The notes under the pieces: generated by a model
Databases searched by the model: none
Told to the model about the DNA's origin: nothing
The model's input: only the letters and a program-made list of their open reading frames with translations
Shown: piece after piece, positions 9,690 through 59,306 of the stretch
Layout: each line of letters starts with the position of its first letter
How positions within the stretch are numbered: position 1 is the stretch's first letter
Program-made: the position numbers and the translations under genes
Source: a virus
IMG/VR virus record: IMGVR_UViG_3300017917_004576
Span: 1-64,000 of that record
DNA length: 64,000 bases
Direction: 5' to 3' (one strand)

Positions 9690-9690
9690 A

Positions 9691-9704
9691 AGTGTATTAT
9701 TAAA
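9691..9704 (+). promoter_or_regulatory. Putative late promoter (GTGTATTAT)
   Basis: AGTGTATTATTAAA lies 40-53 bp before the portal ATG. It is one of seven GTGTAT(A/T) elements placed in or beside the larger intergenic gaps of the virion gene block, with no recognisable -35. It is a candidate binding site for the phage sigma factor. Confidence 0.55.
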
Positions 9705-9743
9705 GTAATCAAATAGCATTACTATTACATTAGAAATAAATAT

Positions 9744-42300: not shown

Positions 42301-45300
42301 TAGTGTTGGATATCTTAAAAATGATAGTAGATCAGGATATGTACAAGCAATGAAATATAAAGATAATCTATGGTATGTTGGATTATCAAAAGCTACTAAA
42401 GGATATGGACCAAGATTGTACGATGTGGCTATGGAGGCTGTTACTGAAAAAGGAGCTATGCTAACTTCTGACAGAAGCATGGTTAGCGCGGATGCTCAAA
42501 AGGTTTGGGCTTATTATTTTAAAAATAGAGGAGATGTTAAAAAAACACCATTAGAACCAGAAAATTGGACTAAAAATCAAGCACTAATAGACCCTAAGCT
42601 TTATGGAAGAAGAGAAACATGGCCACCAGCAACCGATCCGGCTTGGATACTACAGAGCGGCTATAGTAAGAGCCCTACCTTGCTTAATGATCCAGAACAA
42701 GTAAAAAGAAATAATAATAAAGCAAAAAAACCTATTGATTCTAGAAGCATGGCTCTATCATATTTTCAAAGAGCCGATGGCGGACCAATAAGCCGTTTTG
42801 CTGATGGTGGTTCTGTTCCGGCCTTAGTAAGTAACGGCGAAGCTTATGTGCCTCCTAAACTTGCTAAACGTATTGGTTACGGAACACTAGATCGTATGAA
42901 TCAAGCTGATAAAAATGGTATGGGGCGATTTAGTGATGGTGGAATTAGCGTATTTAAGGGACCGGGAAGTGGAACTAGCGATAGCATACCCACAAATCTA
43001 CCAGTAGGAAGTTTTATAATAAGAGAAAAGGCCACTAAAGCACTAGGTTTAAATAGTGGTGGTATTGTTGGAATAAGAAGATTTAAAGACGGTGATAAGG
43101 TTTCTTATGGAAGAAAAGACACAACTGGTATTCGGATGCCCATGCCTGATCTTGGATTTCTAAAGACAAGCGCAATATTATTAGTAGATAGCTTTAGAAC
43201 TACAGAACAAATGATAAGTAATAGCTATTCAGCCTGGCAAGAGATAGACAAAGTGGCTCCGATTTTAGCAAAGACTTTAGATAGATATTATAGTACTATC
43301 GATGCAACATTAGATGATGCTAGTTTGATGGTGCAAAGCTACCGTGCAGTAGTCGTGTCTTTGGCTAAACAAGGAAAAACAACGGCAGAAGTTGATGCTA
43401 TAATGACTCATTATATTGATGCTCTAAATAAAGCAATAGATACATATCAAAATCCTGCCCCTATAGAGTCTCCAAAATCAACAACAACATATACAGTTAC
43501 TCCACCACGCCCTCGTCGCAGAAACAGATCTTCTTTATCACCAACCCCACCTCCCGTACCCAAATCTGCCGAGCAAAAACTAGCAGCAGTAGAAAACGAA
43601 GCAATTGCTCAAAGAATAGAGTCAAAAGAAAGAATCAAATCAGAATATGACCCATTATACAGAGCAGCATCGTCCAGAGAAGATAAGCAAGCGATACAAG
43701 ATGAAGCTAGGCTAAAATTTCAAGCTGTTGATGCTACCATACAGGCCAATAAAGCTGCTCAACAACAAATAATACTACAAGAACTATTGGCTCAAAGAGC
43801 TAAAGAAGCTAATCAATCCACAGAAGAATATATATCTGGGTTACAACAAGAAATTGATACTAGATCAATCAATATTATGGAGCAAGATTTTAGCAATGTA
43901 CTAGGACCAGATGTGCCGTCCACACAAGAAGCAAGACAACAAGCACTTAGCGAGACTATTAGATCTAGAGGACTACAAGCATTTGATGTGACTGATCTAG
44001 GACAAGGCACCAATATAAAAGATATAATATCACAAATTTCCGAAACAAAAAATAAGGCCCAGGCTGCTGCCACAGCGAACGATTATTTGGCTTTGAGAGC
44101 AAGACTAGCCGGACAAAGTCTTGAGGAATATTCTCAGTCATTATCTGATCAGGCTTTAAATTTAGCTGAACAATTTAAGAATAATCTTCCTAGAGCTTTA
44201 GATAGTTTTCAAGAACAATTATTTGATGCTAAACAAAGTCTTGAAAATATAAGCGCTAGAGAAGCAAAAGGAGAATATGCTAATCAAGAAGGACAAGAGA
44301 GAAAAGCTATAGATATTTCACAACTAGAAGAAAGTATAGGAGATACTCTTGAAAATATTCTAGGAGAAAATTTTTCTGGAGATGATAGAAATAAAATATT
44401 ACAAGATATTATGGAAAAGCTAAAAAATGCTGATTCAACACAAGCTTTTAATGTTCAAAGTCTTTCCGACGCTATAAAACAAATATCAACCGATGAAGCA
44501 ATAGCTTCAAGAGCAACAGCAACAGTCGCTGCCCAAAATAAAATACAACCAAATCAAATTACAGGAGCTACAGCAGAAGCTCTAAAATCCAGAGGAGAAA
44601 CTCAACAACTATTTAAGGAAATCGATAAAATATCTGCAAAATTTAGTAAATTTGGTTTAGCTATAGGAGCTGCTGGTAGCGTTATAGCTAAATTTATAGA
44701 TGCAACAGAAAGTAGAAGTGCAGCGATGGCAGCGGCAGCAATTTCTGGTGGCACATCCACAGCTTCCACGCTAGCAGTTGGTGTTGGACAAGGTCTTCAA
44801 ACTTTAAAAGATTTATCTGATCCTAAAGGATTATTTGGTAACACTGGTATAGGAAAATTGGCTGGATCAGTATTGCCTGGTCTCAAAGAAGTATTGACCG
44901 GTCCTTTCGGAATAATTGCTGGGGCGGGGATCTCTTTAGCAGCAGCTTTTAAAGATGCTTACAATGCGGCACGAGAATTTGATAAGCAGCTAAATACTAA
45001 AACTGTTGAAAATAGTTTGAGTAAAGTTGGCACAATGTTTGATCAGTTTGGTAAAGATATGAGTCAGAAAGATTTGCTTGGAGATATCAGCAAAGAATTA
45101 AACACTGCTATATCAGCCGCTATGAAAAATATTAATATCGATGCCACTGTACCAAAAATGTTTTGGGTTAATATGATAGATGCTGCTATGGGCGGAAGCG
45201 AAGCTGCTCAACGAAGTATAGTTCTTGAAAAACAAGGAGTTGGTGCTTATTTTAATACTATTATGCCAGGAGGGAATCAGCAGTTGGAATCGTATATGTC

Positions 45301-48300
45301 CGATCTTGCTCCACAATTAGCATCCCAACAATCTGCTTCCCTAAAACCAGCTGCTGAAAACGCATTTAGATTATTTGAGCAACAATTACGAACAGGAAGT
45401 TCGTCAGATGACATAATGGATCAACTTAAAACAGCAGGAGGAGGAGTATCACAATTTGCCACAGCTATTGCTCGTTCTAATCCTATTATAGAAGAACAAA
45501 TTATTAAAACTCAAGCACGAGCAGATATAAGCGATACCGAGAAACAAAAAATTGTTGATAGTATAATTGCTAGAGAAGCAGAAAAACAAACTATACTAAA
45601 TACCACAGCAACTCTTAGACAAATAGAATTTGAAAAATTAAATAAGGGAACAGACTCATTTGTTAATAGTTTGGAAAGAATCTATAGCAATATGGAAATG
45701 AGTATAAATAAGGCTAGTTTCGATATTCAAAAACTATCAGCAAGTGCCGATCTTGCATCAGAAGCTTTGAGTGGAAATGCTAAAGCCGGACAGATTAATT
45801 TAGAAGCTATTAATGTATTACAAAATAGAAGAGCATATTCACCAGAACAACAAAATCAAGCTGTTGACTTAGCTGGATCTTTTTTTGGATCAACTAGTCC
45901 CGCTATATCATCAATACTTAATATTGGAGATAAATTAGAAAGTACTATTTTACAAACCATCAATAGAACACGCGGTGCCGAGCCAGGAGCAACCAACGAA
46001 CGAGTATTGGCCAGTATAAGATCAGCTCTTGATAGACAACTAACCGATTTACAAATACCAGATAGTCTGGTTCCATCCATTAGCAATCAAATAAGGGATG
46101 CTCTCAAAGACATATCAACACAAGGAGATCTAGATACTGTTAATTTTAATGAAATAGCAGAAAAAGTTCCGGCGCTAACCAAACAAATTGATGCTGCTAG
46201 ACGAGCACAAGAAACTGCTGTTAGAGCATTAGAGTTTTATCAATCTCAATTAAATGAGTATGCTAATGCTATGAATAGTATGGTAGAGTTGCAATTTAAT
46301 GCTAGTAAAGATTTTGCTAGAGCATCGGATATTATAAGTAGCTCATCTGATGAATTATCTAAAGCTTTTGGTAGAGAAATTAGCTTGAGAGATACTTTAA
46401 CACAGTCTTTGGGTAAAACACGAAGACAAACAGGAGGAGCAACAGATCCTGTTGATATATCTAGAAATATTACAAATTTAGAAAATTCTAGAAAAATTTT
46501 ACAAGGAGCTTCGGAGACCGCCGCAGCAAAAGGACCAGCTGCTCAAGACGAATTTAAAATCATGCAAGATAGGCTTCGCAATAATAATTTGGCATTACGA
46601 CAAAATTTCGATGCTCTAAAAAATTTAGCAGATAGTAGTGAAATAGCTAGCGCTGCATTAAATAAAATACAAGAAATTCAACAAAGAAGACAGGCCGGTG
46701 CTAATCTTATCGAAAAACTTGTAACATCTAGTCCAGAAGAAATTAATAAACTTAATAGTGCCATAGCTAGATTACAAAATAATATGATGGGAGTTGCTAA
46801 TGTTGGAACCACAAGCGAACAGCGAGGAGAGAGTCTACAAGCATTTAATATGATAGCTCCATTATTAGGAGAAGGAGCTAAACAAAATGAATTAAGAGCT
46901 AATGTGCTAGAAAGTATGTTGCTTGAAAGCGGACAGGGCGTCAACCCAATGTTTGCACAAGTTTTAGATAGTTTACGAAATCCGGAAGGTGATCCGGAGA
47001 TGCAAGAGGCTATTAGCGTCTATAAAGAAGGCGTTAATTTACAAGCTAGTGCAAATTCTAGACTTGGCGAAATTAAACAATTAATGTTGGAAAATACAGC
47101 AGATGCTGCTGCCGAGAAATTAAAAGTTGCTATGCAAGGAGTAAAGTTTACATTTGAAGAAACAGTATTAAGTGATATTAGATCAGAAATTATTAACTTA
47201 AAGAAGTTGGTTGAGAAAAGAGGACCCGCTGCTGCTGGATTAGCAAATGGCGGAATAGTTTATGCTAGTAATGGAAGAATGATTGATTTTCAATCTAAAG
47301 GCACAGATACTGTACCAGCTATGTTAACGCCAGGAGAGTTTGTTGTAAATAGAGCCTCAACAAAACGCAATCTTCCATTATTACAAAGTATAAATAAAAA
47401 TAAGGGAGGTAAAGTTAATTATTTAGCCGATGGTGGGATTGTGCCTGGTTTTGGTTGGTCAAATAGAAAAACAGAAACTGAATTACGAAGAAATAGAACA
47501 GATACCGACCTAGAGACCCAGGATAGATTTATGGTTTTTCAAGACGATAAAGATCCTACATCAAGGAATGATAATTTTAAAGAATATATTATTGGACCAG
47601 CAGTATCATATAAACAAGGACCAATCCCGGAAGAAAAAATTACAGGCGGCGAGTTGAAAAATCTCTCGGTATTGCAAAACAGTACTAGAATACATAATGA
47701 TACTCCTGGTTTTTTTCTCAAGACTATAAAAACCTTTTATTCTGGTAGTTCAGACGAATATGGGCGCACAGCACTCCCGATTGTTTTGAAATCTGACAGC
47801 TCTATATCTGAAGAATTTAGAAGAGGTCTTAAAAATATTACATTATTTCAAAAACCAGAAATAATATCAAAGCAGAAACGCTTGGTCATGCCACAAATTG
47901 AAAAATATAAAGAATATTATTCTAAATTAATTACTAAGCTAGATAATAATATTAATTTTAAAGATATTATCGAAAATACTCCAAAAGACACATCAGATGT
48001 TAGCATTAAATTAAATAATAGTACTCCGTATAATGTTGAGACTACGATAGATAATTTATCTAGTATTTCTAAAGATAAAAAATATTTATTGGATTCTAAT
48101 ATTAATGATTTTGTAAAGGATGCTCTGTATCCTTTATTTACTCCAGGATCCACAGTTCCAGCAGGATGGACAGTTAATAATAAAGACTATTCTAATAGTA
48201 AAGATTTGGCCTCTAAGATCAAACCAGAAATACTTCCAAAAGACTACGATCTGATTGATATTGTTAAAGAAAATTTAGACCGTTTAAAAAGAATAGATAT

Positions 48301-51300
48301 TAATAATCCTAGATTTTTTCAAGAAACACAAGGATCACAAAATAGAAAAGAAAATGTCAGTTTATTAAAAGATTTTTATGACGGTAAACTATTTTCGATA
48401 CAATTGGATGATTCTGTTTTAGATGGGGAAAAAGCTAAAGGTAAATCTTTACCATTAACTTTATATAATATAAATAATGAACAAGATTGGTTAGATAAAA
48501 TTAGAAATTATCAAGATGAATTAGACAAGATTGATCCGGAAATGCTTTCCAAAACCCTTCCTATCAATCCTACTAATTTTATTAGATTAGATGATAAAAT
48601 AAATAGAAGTAGTAAGATTTTTCCATGGACAGGAAAGGATTTTAATAGTATAACTAAAATTGATTCAGAAAACTTTGTAAAAGATTCAAGAGGATCTTTC
48701 TTAAAAAACCAGTATTTCGGACCCATAACAACAGAAAACCAAGGAGACGAAAAATCTGGCTTGATGTTTCCTTATAAAATAGTTTCTAAAGGAACGACAT
48801 ATGATGAGTCTATAAGAGGTTTTGATCGGCCTTTAGAAAAGTACATGGTAATATCTTCTGATACAAAAAATGAAACAGCACCCTTCGCTAATTTAACTAA
48901 ATCACTTTATATTCCCGCTACTAATTGGGATGATTTTATCATAGATCTTAAATCACAAATAGAGGCTAATCAAAAAGATCCGACTACTGGATATGATTTT
49001 AATTATGCTTTTAATCCTGTTAATTCAGATTTAAATAAATATATGTCAGCCCCTGACATTAGACAAGCGCAAGAAAACCATGCTATTGTACCATCAACAG
49101 ACGGTACTTTGAATGTAAATGATATATTTTTTAGAAATCAAGCTTATTCTGATTTTCTAAATAAAAAAGAAGCAGAAGAAGCCCAAAGTAAAGCTATAGA
49201 TAGTGCAAAGAAAAAATTTAGAGTAACACTAGAAGATACAGAAGCTTTTACAAACGCTAAAAAAGTTGGCGTTGCACGAGCACTATTTGATATTGGCAAA
49301 AAGCAACTAGGACTAACATCATCAAAACCAACTAATTTGGATGGTGTTCGCTCTGTTATATCGGAATTGAGTCAGAAAGCAACACAGTTGTCTAAAAACT
49401 TCTCTAAAGCAGCTCCAAATCAAAGAATTACTAATCCACAGTGGTTAATGAATGATGCTTATAGAGCATTTTTTGTAGAATTATATAAAGGACAATACTC
49501 TGGCAAAGACGATGATACTCCTCAATTTTTGAAAGGATTAGGATTGCCAATAGATGATGCTGATTTTGGTCCCGGAGCAAACCCTATCGATGTTCCTGGT
49601 TTTAGAGGCAAAAAAGAGTCACCATATCGAGACTATAATGCAGCCGCTTTAGGTCGAGCTCAAACTGCTATTAAAAATATTATTAATCGAGAAATAGCAA
49701 TGAAAAGCGGAACCGCTTTTGCTGGAAAATTAAGCGATGAAGATAAACAAAAACTTAAAATTAGTAGTTCAGATGCTAGAATCTATAAGGAAGGTAGTGA
49801 TACTTTTTATCAGCCGGGCGAAGATATTGTACCTAAGTCATATCAACAAGTTGCTGAAATTGGATTAAATCCAAGAAATGTATTTCCTACCGAAACTTTT
49901 AGAAGTGATAACTATTTAAATGCTTTACAGGAATTATATAAAACAGGAACGGATCAAAATGGAAATCTTGTATTCAATTATGGAGATCCGTCAGCCTTAA
50001 CAGCAGCTAAAAGTATTGATATATTAAAAAATTGGTATACAAATTATCAGGATAAATATTTAAATTTAGGAGCAGATTTTGCAGAATCTCAAGTATCCTT
50101 ACAGGACGCAGCAACACAAGCAGATCTTAATGCTTACAAAGAATCAACAGCCCAGCCAGCTCATGCTTTTTTGACAGGAAATAAATACGGAGTATTACCC
50201 GATAGTAATCGTTTATTAGATCAAATTCAACTAGAGATCAAGGAACCAATTAAGAGAGCAAGAGGTGGATTAATATATGCCTCGAATGGAACATTGGTAA
50301 ACTTTCAACCAAAAGGAACCGATACTGTTCCTGCTATGCTAACTCCTGGCGAATTTGTTGTAAATAGAGCAGCAACACAGAAAAATTTACCATTATTACA
50401 GAGTATTAACAGCGGTAAATATGCAAATGGAGGTGTTGTATATGCTCAGAATGGAGGCAGTATTAGGTCTCAAAGTTTTTCTTCAGGTGACGATGATAGC
50501 GAGACAATAAATGCTATTTATACTGTGACCAAGGCAACTCTTTCTGGAAATAATAGATTAAATCAATTAATTATTTTGACTAATGATATTATTAAAAATC
50601 TTCAAGCTCTAATAGACACTAATAGTTATCTTATTCCTATTAATAGTAATGTACAAGATCTTACTAGTTATATAAAAACAATAGATTTTTGCTGCAGAGA
50701 TTCTGTATCATCTTCTGAAGATAGACCTAAGGATGTACAGGATTCAGCACCAGAAGGATCAGGAGAACCACCACAGATACCTCGTCCAGTTTGGTTAGAT
50801 GAATTAAATAATATTCCAAAACCATCTTGGCTGCCTATTAATATGGAGCCTAATTATCCAGAGTGGTTGCCTATTATAATAGATAGACCAATTTGGCTCG
50901 ATGAGCTAACCAATTTAAATAAAACCATCACAATAGAGCCAAGTTTTGAGATTCCTATTCCATTAGAAAAATTTGGTTGTTGTAAAGATGAAACTGGTCA
51001 ATCCATAACCCCATTACCTAGATATCCAGAAGATCCTAATCAACCTATTACTCCATTACCAACAGTTAAGCCACCCATCTTTGCGGAGTCTTCGTATCAG
51101 CCTGGAGAAAAACAATTATCTGCTAAAGATTTTCCATATGATATAGATGTTCCGAAACAAATAGACATCGCTCCTGCTATGCCGTCCAGAAATAGTAGGA
51201 TGGACGATGTTGACGAAAGACTAGGCGTTAATACGCCAGAACAAAGTAGAAGATATTGGGCAGAAGAAGAACGGGCAGTAGATGACCGTAAAAGAGTAAG

Positions 51301-53155
51301 AGAAGAAACCAATACGAATAGGGCTTCAAGATCATTGGATGTTCTTAAAGGGACAGTTGGGGCAAAAGATGCTGCATATTCAACTATAGAGACTATACAA
51401 GCATTACAAGAAGGTAGAGGATTGGACGCTGCGATTGGTGGTTTATCTATGATTGAAAATATTAGTAATATTAGTCCATTAAAAATGGGACCTGTTGGTG
51501 ATATTGCTGGTATAGCGGGATCGGCGACAAACATTGCAAGGGGCATATATGAAGCTACTGGTGGAAATTTTGACAGACTACAGGAACAAGGACTTAGTGA
51601 TGCATTAAACATAGCACAAAACACATCCTCACTAGCTGGAACAACAGGATTATCAAAAAATTTAGGAATCGCTGGAGTTGTTTTACAAACTGGCAAAGAT
51701 GTTTATGAAGAGATTACTTCTACGCCAGATACTGTTGATGCTCAACAAAGAGGTATAGTAGAACGAGGTCTTTTAGCAGCTACCACAGGAAGCGGAGATG
51801 TTGGAGGATCAGATTTAGCAAAACTAGTAGGTTTTGAGCGGGATAGTTCTGCAGATATCATGGCTGCTTATTATGAGAATGTATTAAGTAAAACAGCACA
51901 AGGGGCAACGGTTGGTGGTGTTCCAGGAGCTATAGTTGGATTAAGCACAGCTACCGCTGGAGAGGTTTATAAAGCAGGATCTGGTCTTGCAAGAGATACA
52001 TCTGTCGCTAGAGAATCTCAGGCCAAAACAGATAGAATGTTAGAAGAAAGCAAAACCAAAGAATATGTAGTGGACGACCAGGGGCTTTTAACCCAAGTAG
52101 ATAAAAAATCAGATGATTGGAGTATGGGCATAGATATAAGCACAGAATCAGCTATTAAAGAAGTGGCTATACTTCAGGATAGAATACAAGAACTTGAATC
52201 TGCTCAAAATACGGGATCCTTAAGCTATGATAATCAGGATATAGCATCAGCAATATCGCTAGAACAAGAAAAACTAGGCTTAGCACAACAAAGATTACAG
52301 AATCTAGCCGTTCAACAAGTAGATCAAGAGAATTGGACATTCTCCGAGCTCGGTACAGATAGTCCAGAAGTTAAAGCTAGATTAGACGAATTTAATAGTA
52401 GATTAGCAGCAGCAATAGATCAACTTGGTTTAGACATAGTAAATAATTTGGATCAAGCCAAATTAGAACAACCTGTTACCAAAAACAAAGGAGGATTGAT
52501 TTATGCTAGTAATGGAACATTAGTTAATTTTAGACCAAAAGGAACAGATACCATACCAGCCATGTTAACTCCTGGTGAATTTGTTATAAATAGAAATTCA
52601 ACACAAAAATATAGACCAGTATTAGAAGCTATCAACAATGGTAATTACAATAGAGGCGGAATAGTTAATTATCTTAATAAGGGTGGATATATTCCAGAAT
52701 ATAAATTTATTGGTGGATTAATGGGATCTGCAGGATCTGCTATCCCATCCTTTGATTTTACTAAATATCTGAATAGTCTGGTTGGATCTATTAGTAGTAG
52801 TATAACAGAAGCTTTCGATAAAGCAGTATCTAGCCTAAAACAACCAAACAATGCTGCTGGTGGTGTATCTAATAACGGGGCCGATCTTACTAGTATTGAT
52901 AATTTTGTTAATAGATTAAATAATATTGCTAATATACTTAGTAATATTTATATACCACCACAAATTACTATAACAGGAAAACATGATGTTGTTGTCACAA
53001 TTAATGGAGATACAGTATTGAATCAATTGCGTCCGGATATAGCCGGAATAGTTATATCTGCTATTAGAGGGGCGTTTGCGGATCTTAAAGCAAAAAATCC
53101 AGAAAATAATACTATTGATTTTAATATAGATATAGATCCTAGAAGATTTACATAA
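36395..53155 (+). CDS. Giant tape measure protein with embedded enzyme-like domains (5,586 aa)
   Basis: Residues 130-490 are a classic tape measure core (TP901 type: IRRFAAFSAVTGVFFSLNRA, FIEFDKELVRLQQVTGQSAD, ATGLRTIFTRIQ). The length sets tail length; at about 1.5 angstrom per residue the ceiling is roughly 0.8 micrometre. Motifs FSKGGS, FAGGGE, FAVGGT, FAKGGT, FALGGL and FADGGS (near 655, 949, 1088, 1494, 1921, 2132) divide residues 650-2130 into cells. They contain a HAD-phosphatase-like domain (DFDET 1263-1267, LTARP near 1327, DD 1380-1381), a zinc-protease motif HELTH (1747-1751) and a GNAT-like segment (about 1965-2050). Residues 2240-3610 are helical, with hydrophobic stretches near 2755-2870. 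Three GTDT(V/I)PAMLTPGEFV modules lie at about 3615, 4622 and 5366. The C-terminus has 'ITGKHDVVVTINGDTVL'. Confidence 0.93.
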   Translation: MAQAFNLTAQLNLRGPSNVRQIVSDVKKQLGTITGDIKFNIDPSAINNTTKLSKSLQQLSSDLSSVSSNATAAASAIKNFGQSINSISNSSNKLSSNINKTISSSGNLGTTVTKTAKNISVARTEMEEFGRQSALAIRRFAAFSAVTGVFFSLNRAINSGLKSFIEFDKELVRLQQVTGQSADGLKGLQDEITRLSTGLGVSSDSLIQVSSTLAQAGLSARETEQALKALALTELAPSFDDINQTVEGSIALMRQFGIAAKDLEKALGSVNSVAAAFAVESSDIIAAIQRTGGVFATASKGVSEGADALNEFIAVFTSVRATTRESAETIATGLRTIFTRIQRQGTIEALKEFGVTLTDAEGKFVGAYKAVQLLSEGLSSIDPRDIRFSQIVEELGGFRQIGKVIPLIQQFATAQDALRVAQAGQGSLAADAAKAQLSLANQIAKVREEFLTLIRSLGQSDTFQTLARGALTFASGLIKITDAVKGVLPSLAILAAGASFRGLSQFTSGFIGGLKKVPKGGPGAQQPQSVVGSIGRNIGSSLVGAKTEQVSRDLDQNSAALDKLSGKIDSLVSSMSSINGLTSGITALNTNLVSINSALASYNSALLNNTNALSSNSSSLENVYAALVNLDATLDRKDFGGGGPTTASGGGRILGFSKGGSVPGSGRGDKVPALLEPGEVVMSNRAVNKYGRGNLVNMNKRYFKGGIAREKLQTLVEKSNSIKKYINDTINPDDEALTKIVPFRVDLDDNDFREMKQIMIDTERQRLRYLETYRDDPTANKQVGQRARSSKDPRTVVGFLGLKKPESHWGPGNAFQQHLIKRLNISPSDMPPNLGTPQEQFKDIIDEHYAVLDYQDGDAKFWKDLSYFDTQPGKIDILNKQFKNVVNNNQLKPKPTPNYELFTLPDTRVYYPEIGTKEQFMRDYAAFTTADYAKTHLPAGAYSIGGKIQKFAGGGEALQSKLSTIRTLLGEFYGGDEQLISKSISNSMIIDEARADKIIANLESSRSQLPLFKKLFSEKSSSVGVLNGFPIARYGAIGGTETMRFDELKDEETIREFIKRGKLATQASRGPVGKRIVYGDQKAARRRFAVGGTVEGIAAKEKKSIETVILEQLSSFGDASGVKKILGLGAGEREISSILNASNIRAGKNIEKAIKFINRALAKTGKQDAAREAKEAAMRKVAIAGLFPLDYNKDFSDWKLEDGREIYGYVRGFQSSFLPQIEAMQEANRATRQKFAEDIQDTAALGGLGNRNIQGPIQPLAIDFDETLALGTKMLDENGEEDLPAYSDRKKVMESLAQARPTSLAKRLASIEQKNPGYVRMFSRILTARPQSTADIIASTLNRFGLPYLEQDVTGVSQGLGTNIAKAKAADVARAEKLIDDNEKNIRATMAAGKSTFRYGEVPELKGPAEEKFGQSNIEGGMLEAALSQLLGYNINVDALQRNRAIDFPNGLGRGAQLFGLPPNIETEVKRTLDGDSFSKAREEFSRYFKENPQAFAKGGTATFGSGAFKFPKRISNAYVREMEKLLEQEQMEKVFSTYPGNERMVVDEEAVKKGYESPFTRELFINSFKDKINRNTVFERMGQFARVIGLPPTDLLSAIPTQLDFGVNYPATALFSKDPSGPGTRGLQGVDLTPYGYTEQDKQDLFGYTKLIEEKKKQILKTIKTPVTTYEDGSFSYDTALAEKLRAELDDLQKQQRSLIDKNNAAIKAAKESRLQSANQSGRGSVGIATNPFNTSQRQDYSILYHELTHQLFNSLRTKNAQSFEAYKAKVSSLFSGNNDDVADAFDALVGNTGYNSADVAYGRSYKLSGLSSLMIGSAKESFAKYVNSDPEYIPELRKTWAATNSTTTAKAFKPLNPKVNDILLRGKISQDVIDKYEDNGKEEFLTTLIQKLPLLDENLSGVLDSTLDDLLGGAGISRQKFALGGLADSKDAMSGLMQGLYGNRNQQTDKKEKDFGKISITEDGDMLSVGYLKNDSRSGYVQAMKYKDNLWYVGLSKATKGYGPRLYDVAMEAVTEKGAMLTSDRSMVSADAQKVWAYYFKNRGDVKKTPLEPENWTKNQALIDPKLYGRRETWPPATDPAWILQSGYSKSPTLLNDPEQVKRNNNKAKKPIDSRSMALSYFQRADGGPISRFADGGSVPALVSNGEAYVPPKLAKRIGYGTLDRMNQADKNGMGRFSDGGISVFKGPGSGTSDSIPTNLPVGSFIIREKATKALGLNSGGIVGIRRFKDGDKVSYGRKDTTGIRMPMPDLGFLKTSAILLVDSFRTTEQMISNSYSAWQEIDKVAPILAKTLDRYYSTIDATLDDASLMVQSYRAVVVSLAKQGKTTAEVDAIMTHYIDALNKAIDTYQNPAPIESPKSTTTYTVTPPRPRRRNRSSLSPTPPPVPKSAEQKLAAVENEAIAQRIESKERIKSEYDPLYRAASSREDKQAIQDEARLKFQAVDATIQANKAAQQQIILQELLAQRAKEANQSTEEYISGLQQEIDTRSINIMEQDFSNVLGPDVPSTQEARQQALSETIRSRGLQAFDVTDLGQGTNIKDIISQISETKNKAQAAATANDYLALRARLAGQSLEEYSQSLSDQALNLAEQFKNNLPRALDSFQEQLFDAKQSLENISAREAKGEYANQEGQERKAIDISQLEESIGDTLENILGENFSGDDRNKILQDIMEKLKNADSTQAFNVQSLSDAIKQISTDEAIASRATATVAAQNKIQPNQITGATAEALKSRGETQQLFKEIDKISAKFSKFGLAIGAAGSVIAKFIDATESRSAAMAAAAISGGTSTASTLAVGVGQGLQTLKDLSDPKGLFGNTGIGKLAGSVLPGLKEVLTGPFGIIAGAGISLAAAFKDAYNAAREFDKQLNTKTVENSLSKVGTMFDQFGKDMSQKDLLGDISKELNTAISAAMKNINIDATVPKMFWVNMIDAAMGGSEAAQRSIVLEKQGVGAYFNTIMPGGNQQLESYMSDLAPQLASQQSASLKPAAENAFRLFEQQLRTGSSSDDIMDQLKTAGGGVSQFATAIARSNPIIEEQIIKTQARADISDTEKQKIVDSIIAREAEKQTILNTTATLRQIEFEKLNKGTDSFVNSLERIYSNMEMSINKASFDIQKLSASADLASEALSGNAKAGQINLEAINVLQNRRAYSPEQQNQAVDLAGSFFGSTSPAISSILNIGDKLESTILQTINRTRGAEPGATNERVLASIRSALDRQLTDLQIPDSLVPSISNQIRDALKDISTQGDLDTVNFNEIAEKVPALTKQIDAARRAQETAVRALEFYQSQLNEYANAMNSMVELQFNASKDFARASDIISSSSDELSKAFGREISLRDTLTQSLGKTRRQTGGATDPVDISRNITNLENSRKILQGASETAAAKGPAAQDEFKIMQDRLRNNNLALRQNFDALKNLADSSEIASAALNKIQEIQQRRQAGANLIEKLVTSSPEEINKLNSAIARLQNNMMGVANVGTTSEQRGESLQAFNMIAPLLGEGAKQNELRANVLESMLLESGQGVNPMFAQVLDSLRNPEGDPEMQEAISVYKEGVNLQASANSRLGEIKQLMLENTADAAAEKLKVAMQGVKFTFEETVLSDIRSEIINLKKLVEKRGPAAAGLANGGIVYASNGRMIDFQSKGTDTVPAMLTPGEFVVNRASTKRNLPLLQSINKNKGGKVNYLADGGIVPGFGWSNRKTETELRRNRTDTDLETQDRFMVFQDDKDPTSRNDNFKEYIIGPAVSYKQGPIPEEKITGGELKNLSVLQNSTRIHNDTPGFFLKTIKTFYSGSSDEYGRTALPIVLKSDSSISEEFRRGLKNITLFQKPEIISKQKRLVMPQIEKYKEYYSKLITKLDNNINFKDIIENTPKDTSDVSIKLNNSTPYNVETTIDNLSSISKDKKYLLDSNINDFVKDALYPLFTPGSTVPAGWTVNNKDYSNSKDLASKIKPEILPKDYDLIDIVKENLDRLKRIDINNPRFFQETQGSQNRKENVSLLKDFYDGKLFSIQLDDSVLDGEKAKGKSLPLTLYNINNEQDWLDKIRNYQDELDKIDPEMLSKTLPINPTNFIRLDDKINRSSKIFPWTGKDFNSITKIDSENFVKDSRGSFLKNQYFGPITTENQGDEKSGLMFPYKIVSKGTTYDESIRGFDRPLEKYMVISSDTKNETAPFANLTKSLYIPATNWDDFIIDLKSQIEANQKDPTTGYDFNYAFNPVNSDLNKYMSAPDIRQAQENHAIVPSTDGTLNVNDIFFRNQAYSDFLNKKEAEEAQSKAIDSAKKKFRVTLEDTEAFTNAKKVGVARALFDIGKKQLGLTSSKPTNLDGVRSVISELSQKATQLSKNFSKAAPNQRITNPQWLMNDAYRAFFVELYKGQYSGKDDDTPQFLKGLGLPIDDADFGPGANPIDVPGFRGKKESPYRDYNAAALGRAQTAIKNIINREIAMKSGTAFAGKLSDEDKQKLKISSSDARIYKEGSDTFYQPGEDIVPKSYQQVAEIGLNPRNVFPTETFRSDNYLNALQELYKTGTDQNGNLVFNYGDPSALTAAKSIDILKNWYTNYQDKYLNLGADFAESQVSLQDAATQADLNAYKESTAQPAHAFLTGNKYGVLPDSNRLLDQIQLEIKEPIKRARGGLIYASNGTLVNFQPKGTDTVPAMLTPGEFVVNRAATQKNLPLLQSINSGKYANGGVVYAQNGGSIRSQSFSSGDDDSETINAIYTVTKATLSGNNRLNQLIILTNDIIKNLQALIDTNSYLIPINSNVQDLTSYIKTIDFCCRDSVSSSEDRPKDVQDSAPEGSGEPPQIPRPVWLDELNNIPKPSWLPINMEPNYPEWLPIIIDRPIWLDELTNLNKTITIEPSFEIPIPLEKFGCCKDETGQSITPLPRYPEDPNQPITPLPTVKPPIFAESSYQPGEKQLSAKDFPYDIDVPKQIDIAPAMPSRNSRMDDVDERLGVNTPEQSRRYWAEEERAVDDRKRVREETNTNRASRSLDVLKGTVGAKDAAYSTIETIQALQEGRGLDAAIGGLSMIENISNISPLKMGPVGDIAGIAGSATNIARGIYEATGGNFDRLQEQGLSDALNIAQNTSSLAGTTGLSKNLGIAGVVLQTGKDVYEEITSTPDTVDAQQRGIVERGLLAATTGSGDVGGSDLAKLVGFERDSSADIMAAYYENVLSKTAQGATVGGVPGAIVGLSTATAGEVYKAGSGLARDTSVARESQAKTDRMLEESKTKEYVVDDQGLLTQVDKKSDDWSMGIDISTESAIKEVAILQDRIQELESAQNTGSLSYDNQDIASAISLEQEKLGLAQQRLQNLAVQQVDQENWTFSELGTDSPEVKARLDEFNSRLAAAIDQLGLDIVNNLDQAKLEQPVTKNKGGLIYASNGTLVNFRPKGTDTIPAMLTPGEFVINRNSTQKYRPVLEAINNGNYNRGGIVNYLNKGGYIPEYKFIGGLMGSAGSAIPSFDFTKYLNSLVGSISSSITEAFDKAVSSLKQPNNAAGGVSNNGADLTSIDNFVNRLNNIANILSNIYIPPQITITGKHDVVVTINGDTVLNQLRPDIAGIVISAIRGAFADLKAKNPENNTIDFNIDIDPRRFT

Positions 53156-53156
53156 T

Positions 53157-56100
53157 ATGAATAAAATAACTAAAATATTTAATAATATAGGTTTTTATTG
53201 CTCTATTAATCAAAATATTATTGTTCCCAATAAAGCCATAGCAGGCTATAAATTATTAGAACAAGATAGTATTGGATATTTTATACCATATTTAATTCGA
53301 AATATAAAAGATGGATATAAATGGGAAATTGGAGTTGGTGAAGTTCAGATTGTTGATAGTTTATTAACTATTAAAAAAGTCGAAATATCTAGCTCATCAA
53401 ATAATAATAAGTCAGTAGTATTTACTGGTAATGAAAATGAATTTTATCTCTTTGTAAATAATACTAATTTTAATACTAGTTTTAATAATGTTATTCTTAA
53501 AAATGATCACTTTACTATTGATAATGTAACAAGCATTTATTTGGTAGATAATAATGATAAAAATATTGATTGTGTATTGCCTCAATCTAAAAATGCTAGA
53601 AATCTAGTTATCGATATCAAGCCCATTTCGTCTGCCCATAATGTGATTATTAGAAATCATAACGGTTCAATTTTTGAGTCAACAAAAAATTCAATCAGGC
53701 TAGTTTGCGATGGACAAACTTGGTACATATTAAATGAGAATGATCACTATGATTATGCTTCGTTATCCAATCCAAGTTTTTCTGCTCAAAGCAATCCTGG
53801 CGGGGCAGCATATTCTTTTCAATATAATGATGGATCGAATGGACTACTAGGATCAGAAGCATATTGGAGTTCTGGCGATACTAATAAGTTACTATTAGGA
53901 TCTAGCTCAGAGTCTCTGGCTCATACTGTTATACCGACTTCTGGTTCGGCAGATACAATATTTAATCAAGATTATCAAGCTAGCGATTTTATAATATATG
54001 GTAGTGGACAACCATATAGAAATTTATTTTTCAGTTATGATGGTAGAGTTGGTATTAATATTCCATCTGGATCCAGACCTCAAACTATTTTTCATGTTGT
54101 AAATTATAGTTGTAGTGAAATATTAAGACTAGAAAATAGAACCAGTTGCCAACCAGCTAAACTAACTATTTATCACAAGCCGTCATCATCACTATCTGAC
54201 AACACAGTATGTTCGATATTAAATTTAGCTGGTAAAGATTCTAATAATATTCAAACAGACTATGCTCTTATTAGAGGCTTGGCATCTAGTCCAACAAACA
54301 GACACGGTGGCTTAGTATTAAGTATTGCTTCCGGAAATAATCAACAAAATATAGTTTCTGGAGATTTAAGTAATATTAATATAGGATATGATAATAGTAA
54401 ACAACTTAATATCAGCAATAATGGAAATGTCGCATTGTCTGGTTCGAATATCAGCGCGCTCGGATTATCTTCTGTCACGATAGGAACCAATAATGCAAAT
54501 ATAGTGTGTAATAATAATAGTATAACCACAAATTTCAATACATTATTTTTGGGATCAGGATCAATAACTTCAAATGGAATTTTATCAGCTAGTAATATAT
54601 CTGCAAGCACAATAACACTACCTAATATTGCTGCTAGTAGTATATTGGCATTATCTAATAATAAAACAATAGTACCAATAAATGGCATATCTGTAAATAG
54701 TGGAAATAATGGTTTAATTTTTAATAATATTTCTGGTAATAAATTTTTAACCACAGACAGCAACAATAATGTTGTTGGCGTTTATGATACAGACGACTAT
54801 TTCTTGACAGAAAAAGATATTGTGTGGAACAAATATCAACGCAGATCATGCACAATATGTTTAAAACAAGTAATTTTTGATGATAGTATTCCATCAGAAG
54901 AATTTAGTATTGGCGATCAAGTAGAAATTATTAATGGAAATAATACTATATATAGAACTATTACCGATATGGTAATGGATCAAAATAGTATCTCAGAATT
55001 AATTCTAAATCAAAATGTAACAAGTAATAGTGTCGATAGCTTATCAGTTTTTTCCATATCAAAGGGTGGCTATTTAACAATACAAAAGAGTACCACAGAT
55101 ATAGATTCCGACTCAACATCTATTAGGCTTAGTATTAGACCTAATTTTGAAACAATTTTTAATACAGCACAAAAAAATATTGATTTTAGTATATATGGTA
55201 CGGATACCATACCGGCTTTTAAAGTATATGCTAATGTTGGCTCAAAAACACAAATATCTGGAACATATTATAATTATGCTACTGAAAATAATACAATAGC
55301 ATCCATACCAGTTAATATTGGTGGTAGCGGAATAAATAATAACTTTAGTTCTGCTAATTTTAAATATAATAGTAGTAATAATGTTTTTAGTGGTATAGTA
55401 TCATCTGTTGGAACCAATGGTATTAGTAGTCATTATGGAACATATGACCAAAATGGAAACGTTGCAGAGTGGCTAGAGCCAGATCCTATTGATTCTAATA
55501 ATTCTATTCAATATGCTGCTGGTGGATCAACAGAAACACATGATGCAATATATCTAAAAAGTATTGAACCCGCAGTTATAACTAGTGGGTATAATCATAT
55601 AGGATTTAGAATCGCCAGCGTATCCAATATAACAGATAGTTCACCAATAGGATCTATTCTAAATTTTAGTTTTCAAACAATTAACGACGCATATAACATT
55701 GCGGACACAGATAGTCTATATCTTAGGTCATCTGAAGAATCGTATGACACAGAAAATATATTCAATTTAGGATATGTTGATAGAAACTATAGAATTAGTA
55801 CATACGAAACAACTAATGCTCAATATGCTAGATATCTTAATGCTGTTGCCACAGGAATAAATTATACTAGTAGTGGATTGTATGATACTAGGATGGATAC
55901 TGAAGATAGCGGCGGTATACTTAGAAATACTAATGGTTCTTCATATTCTTATACTACAAAATTGAACATGGCTAATAAGCCAGTAAATTTTATTAGTTAT
56001 ATTAATGCTATAAAATTTGTTAATTGGCTACATAACGGAACTCCTTCTGGTATAGATTTTGCTGATAAATTAATTGATGAAATTTTGGACGATGGTGCAT

Positions 56101-56717
56101 ATAGTTTACTAAGAGAAAATAATAGTTATTTAATAACACATAATAGTAATAAGAAGTATTTCTTACCCAATATTCATCAGTGGCATAAAGCAGCATATTT
56201 TCAACCAGTACCAGCCGTACTTGTTTCTGGCAAACCGGTTGTGACCATAAATACAGACACTCCATATATTGTTGCAACAGAAAAGATAACTACTACTCAA
56301 TCTCAAAATACTAACTCAACAGTTGTTCCCAAACAACTTTTGGCGGATCTAACAGTAAGTGGTTGGCTAGTTGTTGATAAACTTATAGTGAGAGACGGAA
56401 CAATTGCTTCTTCACTGAGCGATATTGGATTTGAGCCAGAAGTACCAACTGAAGAAACTATTAGTGGACAAACAATTGTAGATGGAGATCCACCACCACA
56501 ACAAAATGAAACAGGTGGATCTAACAGCAATGTGTATTGGTCAAACTCAACAGCTTCTGTTAGAAAAGATGGAGTATATGGTGAAACAGAGCCTCCCTAT
56601 CCACCAAATGGTAATGGAGAATCATTAGATTGTGAAGACCCACTACTTATAGAGACAAATAATATTCCGTACTGGTGTAGACCAAGCGGTATATTTATAG
56701 GTCCTTATTTTTATTAA
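53157..56717 (+). CDS. Large tail-tip protein with rearranged FGE-like lectin-fold domain
   Basis: 1,186 residues. Residues 10-110 are a phage tail domain (GYKWEIGVGEVQIVDSLLTI); 190-690 are beta-rich fibre sequence. Residues about 704-821 match the second half of formylglycine-generating-enzyme-like domains (YATENNTIASIPVN, YGTYDQNGNVAEW, AAGGS, GFRIAS), and 868-1016 the first half (YRISTYETTNAQYARYLNA, LNMANKPVNFISYINAIKF, NWLHNG, FLPNIHQWHKAAYF). The usual order is reversed, as in a circular permutant. The catalytic Cys pair is absent, so it should be a binding domain of the C-type-lectin fold. Residues 640-700 resemble part of the next protein. Starts one base after the tape measure stop. 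Confidence 0.8.
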   Translation: MNKITKIFNNIGFYCSINQNIIVPNKAIAGYKLLEQDSIGYFIPYLIRNIKDGYKWEIGVGEVQIVDSLLTIKKVEISSSSNNNKSVVFTGNENEFYLFVNNTNFNTSFNNVILKNDHFTIDNVTSIYLVDNNDKNIDCVLPQSKNARNLVIDIKPISSAHNVIIRNHNGSIFESTKNSIRLVCDGQTWYILNENDHYDYASLSNPSFSAQSNPGGAAYSFQYNDGSNGLLGSEAYWSSGDTNKLLLGSSSESLAHTVIPTSGSADTIFNQDYQASDFIIYGSGQPYRNLFFSYDGRVGINIPSGSRPQTIFHVVNYSCSEILRLENRTSCQPAKLTIYHKPSSSLSDNTVCSILNLAGKDSNNIQTDYALIRGLASSPTNRHGGLVLSIASGNNQQNIVSGDLSNINIGYDNSKQLNISNNGNVALSGSNISALGLSSVTIGTNNANIVCNNNSITTNFNTLFLGSGSITSNGILSASNISASTITLPNIAASSILALSNNKTIVPINGISVNSGNNGLIFNNISGNKFLTTDSNNNVVGVYDTDDYFLTEKDIVWNKYQRRSCTICLKQVIFDDSIPSEEFSIGDQVEIINGNNTIYRTITDMVMDQNSISELILNQNVTSNSVDSLSVFSISKGGYLTIQKSTTDIDSDSTSIRLSIRPNFETIFNTAQKNIDFSIYGTDTIPAFKVYANVGSKTQISGTYYNYATENNTIASIPVNIGGSGINNNFSSANFKYNSSNNVFSGIVSSVGTNGISSHYGTYDQNGNVAEWLEPDPIDSNNSIQYAAGGSTETHDAIYLKSIEPAVITSGYNHIGFRIASVSNITDSSPIGSILNFSFQTINDAYNIADTDSLYLRSSEESYDTENIFNLGYVDRNYRISTYETTNAQYARYLNAVATGINYTSSGLYDTRMDTEDSGGILRNTNGSSYSYTTKLNMANKPVNFISYINAIKFVNWLHNGTPSGIDFADKLIDEILDDGAYSLLRENNSYLITHNSNKKYFLPNIHQWHKAAYFQPVPAVLVSGKPVVTINTDTPYIVATEKITTTQSQNTNSTVVPKQLLADLTVSGWLVVDKLIVRDGTIASSLSDIGFEPEVPTEETISGQTIVDGDPPPQQNETGGSNSNVYWSNSTASVRKDGVYGETEPPYPPNGNGESLDCEDPLLIETNNIPYWCRPSGIFIGPYFY

Positions 56718-56729
56718 TAGGAATTAAAT

Positions 56730-59306
56730 ATGTTATGGTATAATATTCTAAATCCACGTAATTGGCCTGGTGTTAATATTCAAACAGGAAATAATAAAAT
56801 AGATGGAGTATATTATAATCTATTAAGTAGCAATCATGTTAGCTTAGCAGCTAGTGGTAGTATGTTCTTAGCAGCTAATAGCGGTATAAAGTTAATTAGT
56901 AAATCTTTTGTAGATACAAGCGGTATTAGAGCAAGTACTATTTTAGCAGAAAATTTTGGTAAAATTAATGCTACCGGAGGTATTATTCCATTTTATTCTG
57001 GCGTTAATAGTGGAATAGTGATTAAAAAGGATGACTCAACACTAATAACTACTGATTATATTGTATATAATACTGGTAATTTTCTATCTTTTCCAGGAGG
57101 TTCCCCTGGATCGCTATTATATCTTGTTCCTCAATTTATACAAGATGGTGTTGTCGTCCCCACAACTAGAAAAATTGCCACATTTGACTATATCAACTTA
57201 GTGCCCGAATCAACAGATGCTGAAGGAGAAATTCTTTTTCCTGCTAGCATAAGCACAAATGTTGCTATAAAGGCTAATAGTGGTATTGTGTTAGGACCAA
57301 ATAATGATCTTGAATCTTATAAAGGATATATATTAACTCACAATGGTTCTGGTAATGTTGCTCAGTGGAAACCAGCAACATATCTAAGGGAAAATTATGA
57401 TTCACAAGTCCCATATGAGGGATTAGAAGATGTTGGTTTATCGTGGATTAGATTTCCAAGAAGACCGGTATCATTTTTATCTAATAATAGAATAGCATTT
57501 TATTTATCTGATAGAACATGGTCTCCATATCCAGCTGTCACAAGTATAGAGCAGATAATTAAGGAGTTCGGTGACGGTTTGGATACTATAAGATTAGAAA
57601 ATTTGGGTGGGGATGGAGAAGAAAGACAATATGTTTTTAGTAAATTCGCCACCACTGATATTTCTCCATTTGCAGAATCTGTTCCGACTGGCTTGGTTAT
57701 AGGTCCGTATGACTTTACAGATATTTTTGAGTCAACAGAAATTTTTGACCCTATGGAAACCGTTGGCGTCGGACAGTCCCCAACACCTGTTCCTGTTTTA
57801 ATAGTACACATGTGTCCATCTGATCCATTATTACAAAGCACATTCTTAGATCAGAATGGATTTGCTTTTTCTGTTACGAAAGGTGGCTATTTACCTATGC
57901 AGTTGTCTCCGGATGCTATAGATCCACTATTGTGTCCAGATGCTACAAATTTAACTTTTAAACCATCAACATCTAATAATATTAGTATAAGACCAAATAT
58001 TTTTACTTCATTCAATATGCTTGGAGAAAATATTGATTTCTTAATTTATGGCAAAAAAACTATTCCATATAATAATTATGTTAGTGATATATATGAACTA
58101 AATGAAAATTATATTCCTAAAGGTTTAGAACCAGCTTTTAAAGTAGACGCTAATATCGAAAATTCTGTTATAGGATCTCCATCTGGTGTTGTATTTAGTA
58201 GATATTTAGATAGAAATAAAACTATTCCATCTGGATGGAGTTTTGATGATAAAGCTAAAATTAGTATAAATACTAGTGGATCATATATTTTATCTAGTAT
58301 ACCAAGTGGAAATTCTACATTATCTACATATGCAGATTTAACAATAAGTGGACACACATATTCTACAACAATAACGACAGAAGACATATATTTAAAACCT
58401 GCACCATCTCAAGATAATACAGGAAAATATATTGCTAATGCTTTATTAACTATAGATAGTAATGGAAAAATTGTATCTAGAACACCAAGAACCAATCCAA
58501 CGGTACCATCTAGACCATTGAATGTTAGAGGGTCTGTTGGTCATTACAATGCCGGTGCCGGTAATTACGAATATTCAATTCAGTGGGATGCTCCAACAAA
58601 CGATGGAAATAGTAGTATTATTAAATATTATATTCAATTTTCATTAGACGATGGATCAACTTGGACTAACGCTCAGGATACAGCCCCAAACAGCACGGCC
58701 TATATTGATAGAGGAATATCCAATCAACAATCTTGTACTATCAAAAGTGTTGGTAGCAATATTATTTTCAGAGTAGCTGCTCAAAATAAAGTTGGTATCG
58801 GATCTTATTCCGAAGCCACATCAATATTTGTAACAAATACAACCGTACCAACTTCTCCCATATCACTATCTGGAACTAGAGAAGTTATAGATACTAATAT
58901 TTCTCAAATTAATTTATCTTGGGGCGATAGCGCCCAATTAGGACTTGGTGGAGAAGCAGCGTTTTCTGGTTATGTGATAGAAGAATCAGAAGATTATGGT
59001 AATACTTGGTACTATTATAATTTACCATCTGGAAATAATTTTATCACAGATACCGACGAGACTATAACAGGCTTATCTAGTAGAAAAGATTATTTATATA
59101 GAATTAGTGCATGGAATACCAGCGGGCCTAGCGCATATTCATTTTTATATTCTTCTGGCTTGACCATAATTGAAATTGATCCAGAAGAAGGTGAGGCTGT
59201 TATTGATAATAATACTCAAACAGCAGAAGAAATACAAGAAGCAGAAGATATCTTAGGTAATTGGGATTTTGGTGTTATTTTATTCACAGGAGTGTGTAGC
59301 ATATGA
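56730..59306 (+). CDS. Tail-tip protein with two fibronectin type III domains
   Basis: 858 residues. A beta-rich N-terminal half is followed by a segment (about 385-500) paralogous to the preceding protein: KGGYLPMQLSPDAID, then ISIRPN, NIDFLIYG, PAFKVDANI. Residues 590-704 and 707-815 are FN3 domains: VPSRPLNVRGS with YSIQWDAPTNDG, KYYIQFSLDDGSTW, FRVAAQNKVG; and TSPISLSG with INLSWGDS, YVIEESEDYGNTWY, YRISAWNTSG. FN3 pairs are common in phage tail-tip proteins and bind surface polymers. Ends in an acidic tail overlapping the next gene by 4 bp. Confidence 0.8.
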   Translation: MLWYNILNPRNWPGVNIQTGNNKIDGVYYNLLSSNHVSLAASGSMFLAANSGIKLISKSFVDTSGIRASTILAENFGKINATGGIIPFYSGVNSGIVIKKDDSTLITTDYIVYNTGNFLSFPGGSPGSLLYLVPQFIQDGVVVPTTRKIATFDYINLVPESTDAEGEILFPASISTNVAIKANSGIVLGPNNDLESYKGYILTHNGSGNVAQWKPATYLRENYDSQVPYEGLEDVGLSWIRFPRRPVSFLSNNRIAFYLSDRTWSPYPAVTSIEQIIKEFGDGLDTIRLENLGGDGEERQYVFSKFATTDISPFAESVPTGLVIGPYDFTDIFESTEIFDPMETVGVGQSPTPVPVLIVHMCPSDPLLQSTFLDQNGFAFSVTKGGYLPMQLSPDAIDPLLCPDATNLTFKPSTSNNISIRPNIFTSFNMLGENIDFLIYGKKTIPYNNYVSDIYELNENYIPKGLEPAFKVDANIENSVIGSPSGVVFSRYLDRNKTIPSGWSFDDKAKISINTSGSYILSSIPSGNSTLSTYADLTISGHTYSTTITTEDIYLKPAPSQDNTGKYIANALLTIDSNGKIVSRTPRTNPTVPSRPLNVRGSVGHYNAGAGNYEYSIQWDAPTNDGNSSIIKYYIQFSLDDGSTWTNAQDTAPNSTAYIDRGISNQQSCTIKSVGSNIIFRVAAQNKVGIGSYSEATSIFVTNTTVPTSPISLSGTREVIDTNISQINLSWGDSAQLGLGGEAAFSGYVIEESEDYGNTWYYYNLPSGNNFITDTDETITGLSSRKDYLYRISAWNTSGPSAYSFLYSSGLTIIEIDPEEGEAVIDNNTQTAEEIQEAEDILGNWDFGVILFTGVCSI

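What the first reader, a model, noticed from the sequence alone, without database searches (positions are those of the whole stretch)
55270..56200. FGE-sulfatase-like domain with its two halves in reversed order
Residues 704-821 hold the usual second half (YGTYDQNGNVAEW ... GFRIAS) and 868-1016 the usual first half (EYRI-type start, ETTNAQYARYLNA ... FLPNIHQWHKAAYF). The break falls exactly after KAAY(F), where FGE-like domains have a loop, so this looks like a true circular permutation in a phage adhesin. The fold is the C-type-lectin type used by tropism-switching proteins.
Basis: partly seen in the sequence, partly recalled or inferred. Interest (0 to 1): 0.75.

Follow-up and report, generated by a model that had tools for sequence, protein, structure and literature searches.

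The report
Circularly permuted FGE-type lectin-fold phage domain
A protein from an uncultivated lake virus (a tailed phage) carries a well-known lectin-type fold with its two halves in swapped order, and this rearranged version turns out to be a whole family, often several copies per virus, in many uncultivated viruses, apparently undescribed and apparently fastened at its new ends by a cysteine pair.

Summary
In ORF 53157-56717 (+, 1186 aa) the Pfam FGE-sulfatase profile matches its second half (149-254) at about residues 731-820 and its first half (20-123) at 860-1014. It is not a one-off: all three FGE-type domains of this 120-kb virus record have the swapped order, as do 97 of 122 non-redundant domains collected from IMG/VR; 25 have the normal order. 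A doubled canonical profile aligns across its own join (score 435 to 559; window family 229 to 304), the formal sign of a circular permutation. AlphaFold2 gives one compact domain (sister domain pLDDT 95, pTM 0.94; window domain 74, 0.75). Two cysteines, one at each new end, are both present or both absent in all 97 permuted domains after four misaligned rows were read by eye; this suggests a disulfide staple. One correction: the cut is not after KAAYF but about 25-35 residues later, in the loop before SSANF; the YYNYATENNT stretch belongs to the carrier scaffold, shared with the next ORF. No reverse transcriptase was found, so no sign of a tropism-switching retroelement. Most likely a non-enzymatic, ligand-binding virion module; ligand and virion location are untested. 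New variant of a known fold.

The parts
53157..56717 (+). Carrier ORF, 1186 aa, directly downstream of the 5586-aa ORF 36395-53155 (tape-measure-like by size, place and repeated motifs; inference)
55047..55358 (+). Scaffold segment (residues 631-734) shared with the FGE-free neighbouring ORF 56730-59306; includes YYNYATENNTI, which is therefore most likely not part of the FGE domain
   Evidence: blastp E 8e-11
55335..56303 (+). Whole circularly permuted FGE-type domain (about residues 727-1049)
   Evidence: family model A2, positions 2-290 of 293, E 1.2e-86; AlphaFold2
55347..55616 (+). Segment A: canonical second half (SSANF...GTYDQNGNVAEW...GFRIAS), now first
55530..55601 (+). Stretch equivalent to the variable region of TvpA/Mtd (between AGGS and GFR), the fastest-changing part of the family
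   Evidence: equivalence to the DGR variable region inferred from PMC5006420
55617..55727 (+). New internal join between the old C-terminus (GFRIAS) and old N-terminus, 37 aa between profile matches here; mostly 1-8 aa in the other members
55728..56216 (+). Segment B, profile-matched part: canonical first half (NLGYVDRNYRI..ETTNAQYARYLNA...LPNIHQWHKAAYF), now last
56217..56303 (+). Tail of segment B up to the cut (VLVSGKPVVTINTDTPYIVATEK and on), equivalent to ..GYWxYATQSxTxPTCVTAD.. in the family

Best explanation
The domain is a genuine circular permutant of the FGE-sulfatase (FGE-type C-type-lectin) fold. The old last strand (GFRxAS) runs by a short join into the old first strand, and the new ends sit in the loop that in canonical relatives connects ..YxLYPxxQNTITTAD.. 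to ..ANYN... It most likely arose by tandem duplication of a canonical domain and loss of the outer halves (inferred), once for almost all members, with one member (L085) placed apart. The two new ends stay next to each other, and many members fasten them with a pair of cysteines (disulfide inferred from linked presence). The domain is not an FGE-type enzyme. It most likely acts as a displayed ligand- or receptor-binding module: at the window locus inside a protein downstream of the tape-measure-like ORF, elsewhere at the tip of or between Thr/Pro-rich linkers (function inferred). Shown: order, family, predicted single fold, linked cysteines, fast-changing variable-region-like stretch, no reverse transcriptase found. 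Inferred: origin, disulfide, virion location, binding role.
For: Profile order (where both halves were matched, the second half precedes the first on the coding strand). 71 viral loci from one scan, almost all permuted, many with 2-4 copies; 97 permuted and 25 canonical non-redundant domains after further scans. Doubled canonical profile aligns through its join, 435 to 559 for the family and 229 to 304 for the window family. AlphaFold2 with permuted-only alignments: pLDDT 95.3 / pTM 0.94 (sister domain), 74.2 / 0.75 (window). Foldseek PDB: the best hits are FGE-family structures, about 60-123 columns each. Linked cysteines: 30/30 and 43/43 in 73 domains, 8 of 8 independent pairs on starred branches; in the larger set, after reading four misaligned rows by eye, no mismatch, 20 of 20 pairs on the best tree but only 5 on supported branches. 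Two further linked pairs tie the C-terminal tail to the domain. Order labels need only 2 changes on the tree against 23 in shuffles.
Against: No permutation-aware superposition could be run (no coordinates are returned). The window domain model is only moderate (pLDDT 74, pTM 0.75). Cysteine linkage cannot tell within-chain from between-chain bonds, and the window family itself lacks the pair. The larger tree is a quick search with many weak forks. The binding role rests on analogy with TvpA/Mtd, on sequence variability and on protein context; the canonical relatives were not shown to be less variable there.
Confidence: 0.88

Rival explanations
1. Inter-chain completion: segments A and B of one chain do not pair with each other but with those of neighbouring chains in an oligomeric fibre, so the domain is segment-swapped rather than permuted within a chain.
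For: Phage fibre proteins are often trimers (general knowledge); segment swapping is recorded for the C-type-lectin-like superfamily in collagen IV NC1 (PMC3779223). The cysteine data do not exclude it.
Against: AlphaFold2 monomer gives one closed domain at pTM 0.94; joins of mostly 1-8 aa suit a tight turn; the domain is found in many different protein contexts and copy numbers.
Confidence: 0.07
2. Two unrelated incomplete domains left by deletion in a tandem array, not folding together (degenerate remnants).
For: A tandem array is the likely source; proteins with ABBA order (L095) and a BA domain nested in AB (L056/L106) exist.
Against: Conservation of both halves across 97 non-redundant domains, retained core motifs, confident single fold, linked cysteines between the ends.
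Confidence: 0.02
3. Assembly or binning artefact, or frameshift-made order.
For: All sequences come from metagenomes; L007 shows a frame break inside segment A.
Against: The same order in dozens of contigs from many metagenomes, in one open frame, at 46-100% identity.
Confidence: 0.005
4. The domain is a target of a diversity-generating retroelement used for tropism switching.
For: FGE-type C-type-lectin fold is the fold of DGR variable proteins Mtd and TvpA (PMC5006420); the equivalent stretch is the fastest-changing part here.
Against: No reverse transcriptase in the own record or in 19 related records, though these records may be incomplete; no template repeat was looked for.
Confidence: 0.03

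Closest known systems
Pfam PF03781 FGE-sulfatase / SUMF1-like domain (SUMF2 1y4j, CarF 5aoh, PvdO 5hha, PorK, CalU17)
   Same: Both halves match the profile and half-length fold matches go to these structures; motifs YGTYDxxGNVxEW, GFRxAS, TNAQY, EWYKAAY are kept
   Different: Order of halves is swapped; no cysteines in the window domain, so no FGE-type catalytic cysteine pair
DGR variable proteins TvpA (2y3c) and phage Mtd
   Same: [quoted passage not shown] both halves of a sister domain hit TvpA weakly, in swapped order; the equivalent of the variable region is the fastest-changing stretch
   Different: Variable-region equivalent lies early in the permuted domain instead of near the C-terminus; no reverse transcriptase found
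Canonical relatives in small contigs (L076, L079, L088-L093, L255-L266) and within viral proteins (L044, L250, L251)
   Same: Same domain, up to about 50-60% identity to permuted members in the best segment
   Different: Normal order; 24 of 25 lack the cysteine pair at the loop
Circularly permuted carbohydrate-binding modules (Montanier et al. 2010, seen only as a title in the reference list of PMC4444583)
   Same: A sugar-binding domain family related to another by circular permutation
   Different: Different family

Membership tests
PF03781 FGE-sulfatase superfamily | Match above the curated cut-off | tested here: met
   38.7 bits against cut-off 23.3 for the whole protein
PF03781 FGE-sulfatase superfamily | First half precedes second half | tested here: not met
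   Order reversed; aligns through the join of a doubled profile. Hence filed as a permuted variant, not a standard member
PF03781 FGE-sulfatase superfamily | FGE-type C-type-lectin fold | tested here: inconclusive
   Confident single-domain model of the sister domain; half-length Foldseek matches to FGE-family structures at E 0.07 or worse, since Foldseek is order-dependent; no permutation-aware superposition possible
Catalytic formylglycine-generating enzyme | Active-site cysteine pair in the second half (own knowledge of human FGE) | tested here: not met
   Window domain holds no cysteine; cysteines in the second half are rare in the family apart from the A-start position
Circular permutant of a known domain | One continuous alignment to a head-to-tail doubled profile, better than to the single profile | tested here: met
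   435 to 559 and 229 to 304, alignment crosses the join
Circular permutant of a known domain | Halves pack into one domain | tested here: met
   AlphaFold2 pTM 0.94 for the sister domain, 0.75 for the window domain; prediction, not experiment
DGR variable protein | Reverse transcriptase in the genome | tested here: not met
   None in own record or 19 related records; the records may be incomplete
DGR variable protein | Template repeat with adenine-specific differences | not tested
   Not searched for
Virion adhesin / receptor-binding protein | Located on the virion and binds a surface ligand | not testable with these tools
   Only genome context (downstream of the tape-measure-like ORF) and Thr/Pro-rich linkers point to it

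The most novel reading that the evidence does not exclude
A virus-borne, circularly permuted form of the FGE-type C-type-lectin fold arose once (with one possible second case) in large uncultivated tailed phages, spread as a multi-copy stalked binding module, and repeatedly gained or lost a disulfide that rejoins its new ends; the swap moves the tether away from the original base of the fold and so changes how the binding face is presented.
Probability: 0.5. Interest if true: 0.72.

Novelty: new variant of a known kind. Interest (0 to 1): 0.62.

Why it matters
The FGE-type C-type-lectin fold is one of nature's main scaffolds for tolerating massive sequence variation. A permuted, widespread viral version shows that the fold survives opening in another loop, gives a natural case for studying how circular permutants evolve and are stabilised, and probably marks a class of binding proteins in uncultivated phages that order-dependent structure searches do not recognise as whole domains.

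Tried and rejected
Diversity-generating retroelement: no reverse transcriptase found. Enzyme: no FGE-type cysteines. Break right after KAAYF with YYNYATENNT as its continuation: rejected because that stretch aligns with the neighbouring FGE-free ORF; a low-threshold profile alignment did place it on the FGE loop, so some doubt remains. Relatives in GenBank phages or plasmids: none by tblastn. Permuted copies in bacterial genomes: none in 299 genomes of one phylum except two contigs of a lake MAG that match this virus at 98-99%; beyond the 30 best loci that were fetched, this rests on the match coordinates alone. L140 looked like a permuted bacterial hit but is a tandem of canonical domains. 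Foldseek against viral models: nothing useful. Foldseek of the window model against the PDB: no significant match. Sequence search of the PDB with the whole window ORF: no hit. Close canonical relatives in 399 bacterial genomes of that phylum: none. Literature: seven searches of the open-access library and six papers checked gave no report of a permuted FGE or C-type-lectin domain; subscription journals are mostly not held. Strict single origin: the tree needs two changes because L085 groups with canonical L044.

Full report
What was checked. The ORF at 53157-56717 (+) encodes 1186 aa. Pfam PF03781 matches it in two pieces whose order is opposite to the profile: residues 860-1014 match profile 20-123, and the fragment covering the upstream part matches 149-254. 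A search of the whole 120-kb virus record with the same family repeats this, and finds two more FGE-type proteins on the minus strand. Read out, both are also permuted: a 430-aa protein with a Thr/Pro-rich stalk followed by the domain (L014:11831-13123), and an 841-aa protein that begins with the domain and continues in long Thr/Pro repeats (L014:7684-10209). The family model finds exactly these three domains, each from end to end in the permuted order.

Family. A scan of IMG/VR with the window domain gave seven relatives at 46-100% identity; six keep both halves in one frame in the permuted order and one (L007) has a frame break inside segment A. A scan with the 430-aa protein's domain gave 71 loci. 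Half-domain profiles show AB (second half, then first half) in almost all, with several proteins holding two to four copies. Joins between A and B are mostly 1-8 aa. After two more scans the non-redundant set holds 97 permuted and 25 canonical domains. These scans were seeded with members of the family, so the ratio is not a census. In 11 viral records searched with the Pfam profile, the second half precedes the first on the coding strand wherever both were matched as a pair. In 299 genomes of the phylum of the lake MAG G001, the only full-length permuted matches are on two of that MAG's contigs, which match this virus at 98-99% over the aligned length; that is a weak hint at a host or simply a binning matter. 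GenBank phages and PLSDB plasmids give no match.

Circular permutation proper. A canonical profile from 11 sequences aligned to the permuted family covers only one half (171 columns, score 435). When the canonical alignment is written twice head to tail, the alignment runs through the join (250 columns, score 559); for the four-sequence window family the single profile gives 151 columns and score 229, the doubled one 229 columns and score 304. AlphaFold2 with alignments of permuted sequences only gives pLDDT 95.3 and pTM 0.94 for the sister domain, and 74.2 and 0.75 for the window domain, where the low values lie mainly in the N-terminal scaffold stretch, a few loops and the C-terminal tail. 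Foldseek, which respects chain order, finds for the sister domain mainly FGE-superfamily structures (CarF, SUMF2, PorK, CalU17, TvpA, PvdO, EgtB) over about 60-123 columns each, TM about 0.1-0.25, none at E below 0.07, and nothing convincing among viral models. This is what a permuted member should look like to such a program, but it is not itself proof of the fold.

Where the cut is. Residues 631-734, including GTYYNYATENNTI, align with the neighbouring ORF 56730-59306, which has no FGE domain (E 8e-11). The domain therefore begins near SSANF (residue about 727-731) and ends near TPYIVATEK (about 1041-1049), the same loop as in the rest of the family.

Linked cysteines. In the sister domain, the cysteine in NFNNC (next to the new N-terminus) and the one in PTC (near the new C-terminus) are both present or both absent in the 73-domain set: 30 with both, 43 with neither, none with one, after two rows in which insertions had pushed the second cysteine off its column were read by eye. 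In the 97-domain set, 38 aligned rows have both and 55 neither; four rows were mismatched in the alignment, and in each the missing cysteine was found by eye close to its expected place. On the 84-row tree, built without these columns, each trait needs 15 changes and 8 of 8 independent pairs on supported branches agree, p 0.008. On the larger, quick tree 20 of 20 pairs agree but only 5 lie on supported branches. One canonical sequence, L282, has cysteines on both sides of the intact loop, which fits the two positions being neighbours. Two further pairs link the tail: a cysteine just before NSAN with one in the tail, and the cysteine of TNC near the first helix with one in the tail, 21 of 21. 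A disulfide staple at the opened loop is the simplest reading; it is inferred, and the window family lacks it.

Origin. Labels permuted/canonical need two changes on both trees, against 10.5 and 22.9 in shuffles. The extra change is L085, a permuted domain that groups with the canonical domain of L044. L085 keeps an ANY strand at its C-terminal end as well as a matching ENW at its start, as a tandem-duplication origin would leave (read by eye). L095 has a permuted domain directly followed by a canonical one. Duplication with loss of the outer halves is the likely route, but it is inference.

Function. The window protein lies downstream of a 5586-aa ORF that looks like a tape measure (size, place and repeated motifs; inference) in a record with terminase, portal and tail-fibre genes. 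The stretch equivalent to the variable region of TvpA/Mtd (PMC5006420) differs in 77% of positions between related pairs against 34% elsewhere; surface loops of canonical FGE domains may vary as much, and this was not compared. No reverse transcriptase is present in the own record or 19 related ones. I take it to be a non-enzymatic ligand-binding module shown on the virion or a virion-associated protein; ligand and location are untested.

Novelty. Searches of an open-access library found no report of a permuted FGE or C-type-lectin domain. A survey of structural outliers lists segment swapping, but no permutation, for the C-type-lectin-like superfamily (PMC3779223), and a survey of 224 jumbo phages reports finding no domain of this family in them (PMC7824862). 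It is filed as a new variant of a known kind.

Noticed in passing
L014:11831-13123 and 7684-10209 (minus strand; same virus record, outside the window): Two further permuted FGE proteins with long Thr/Pro repeats; the 841-aa one carries several hundred residues of TPT-type repeats.
   Followed up: yes
L014:13428-15374 (minus strand): 648-aa ORF whose ends look like a papain-type protease (NSWG motif), interrupted by a LAGLIDADG-bearing intein-like insert (Pfam LAGLIDADG_3).
   Followed up: no
L095 ORF 1-5307 (same contig as L044): ABBA protein: a permuted domain followed after 3 aa by a canonical domain.
   Followed up: partly
L056 / L106, residues 836-1414 of the L106 ORF: A canonical BA domain appears nested inside a permuted AB domain.
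   Followed up: no
L080-L082, ORF of 1113 aa: Permuted domain with about 300 aa inserted inside segment A (GNVEEY ... RGGSF), read by eye; the same protein has a HEMCHALGFG motif typical of zinc metalloproteases.
   Followed up: no
L007:3958-7529: Relative of the window protein broken by a frame change inside segment A; sequencing error or real break not decided.
   Followed up: no
G001 (lake Alphaproteobacteria MAG LLD_269), contigs C47 and C301: Both contigs match this virus at 98-99% over the aligned length in two distant regions; either binned virus or a host hint.
   Followed up: partly
window:36395-53155: Single ORF of 5586 aa with repeated GDKVPALLEPGEVVMSNRAV-like motifs, probably the tape measure; unusually long.
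   Followed up: no
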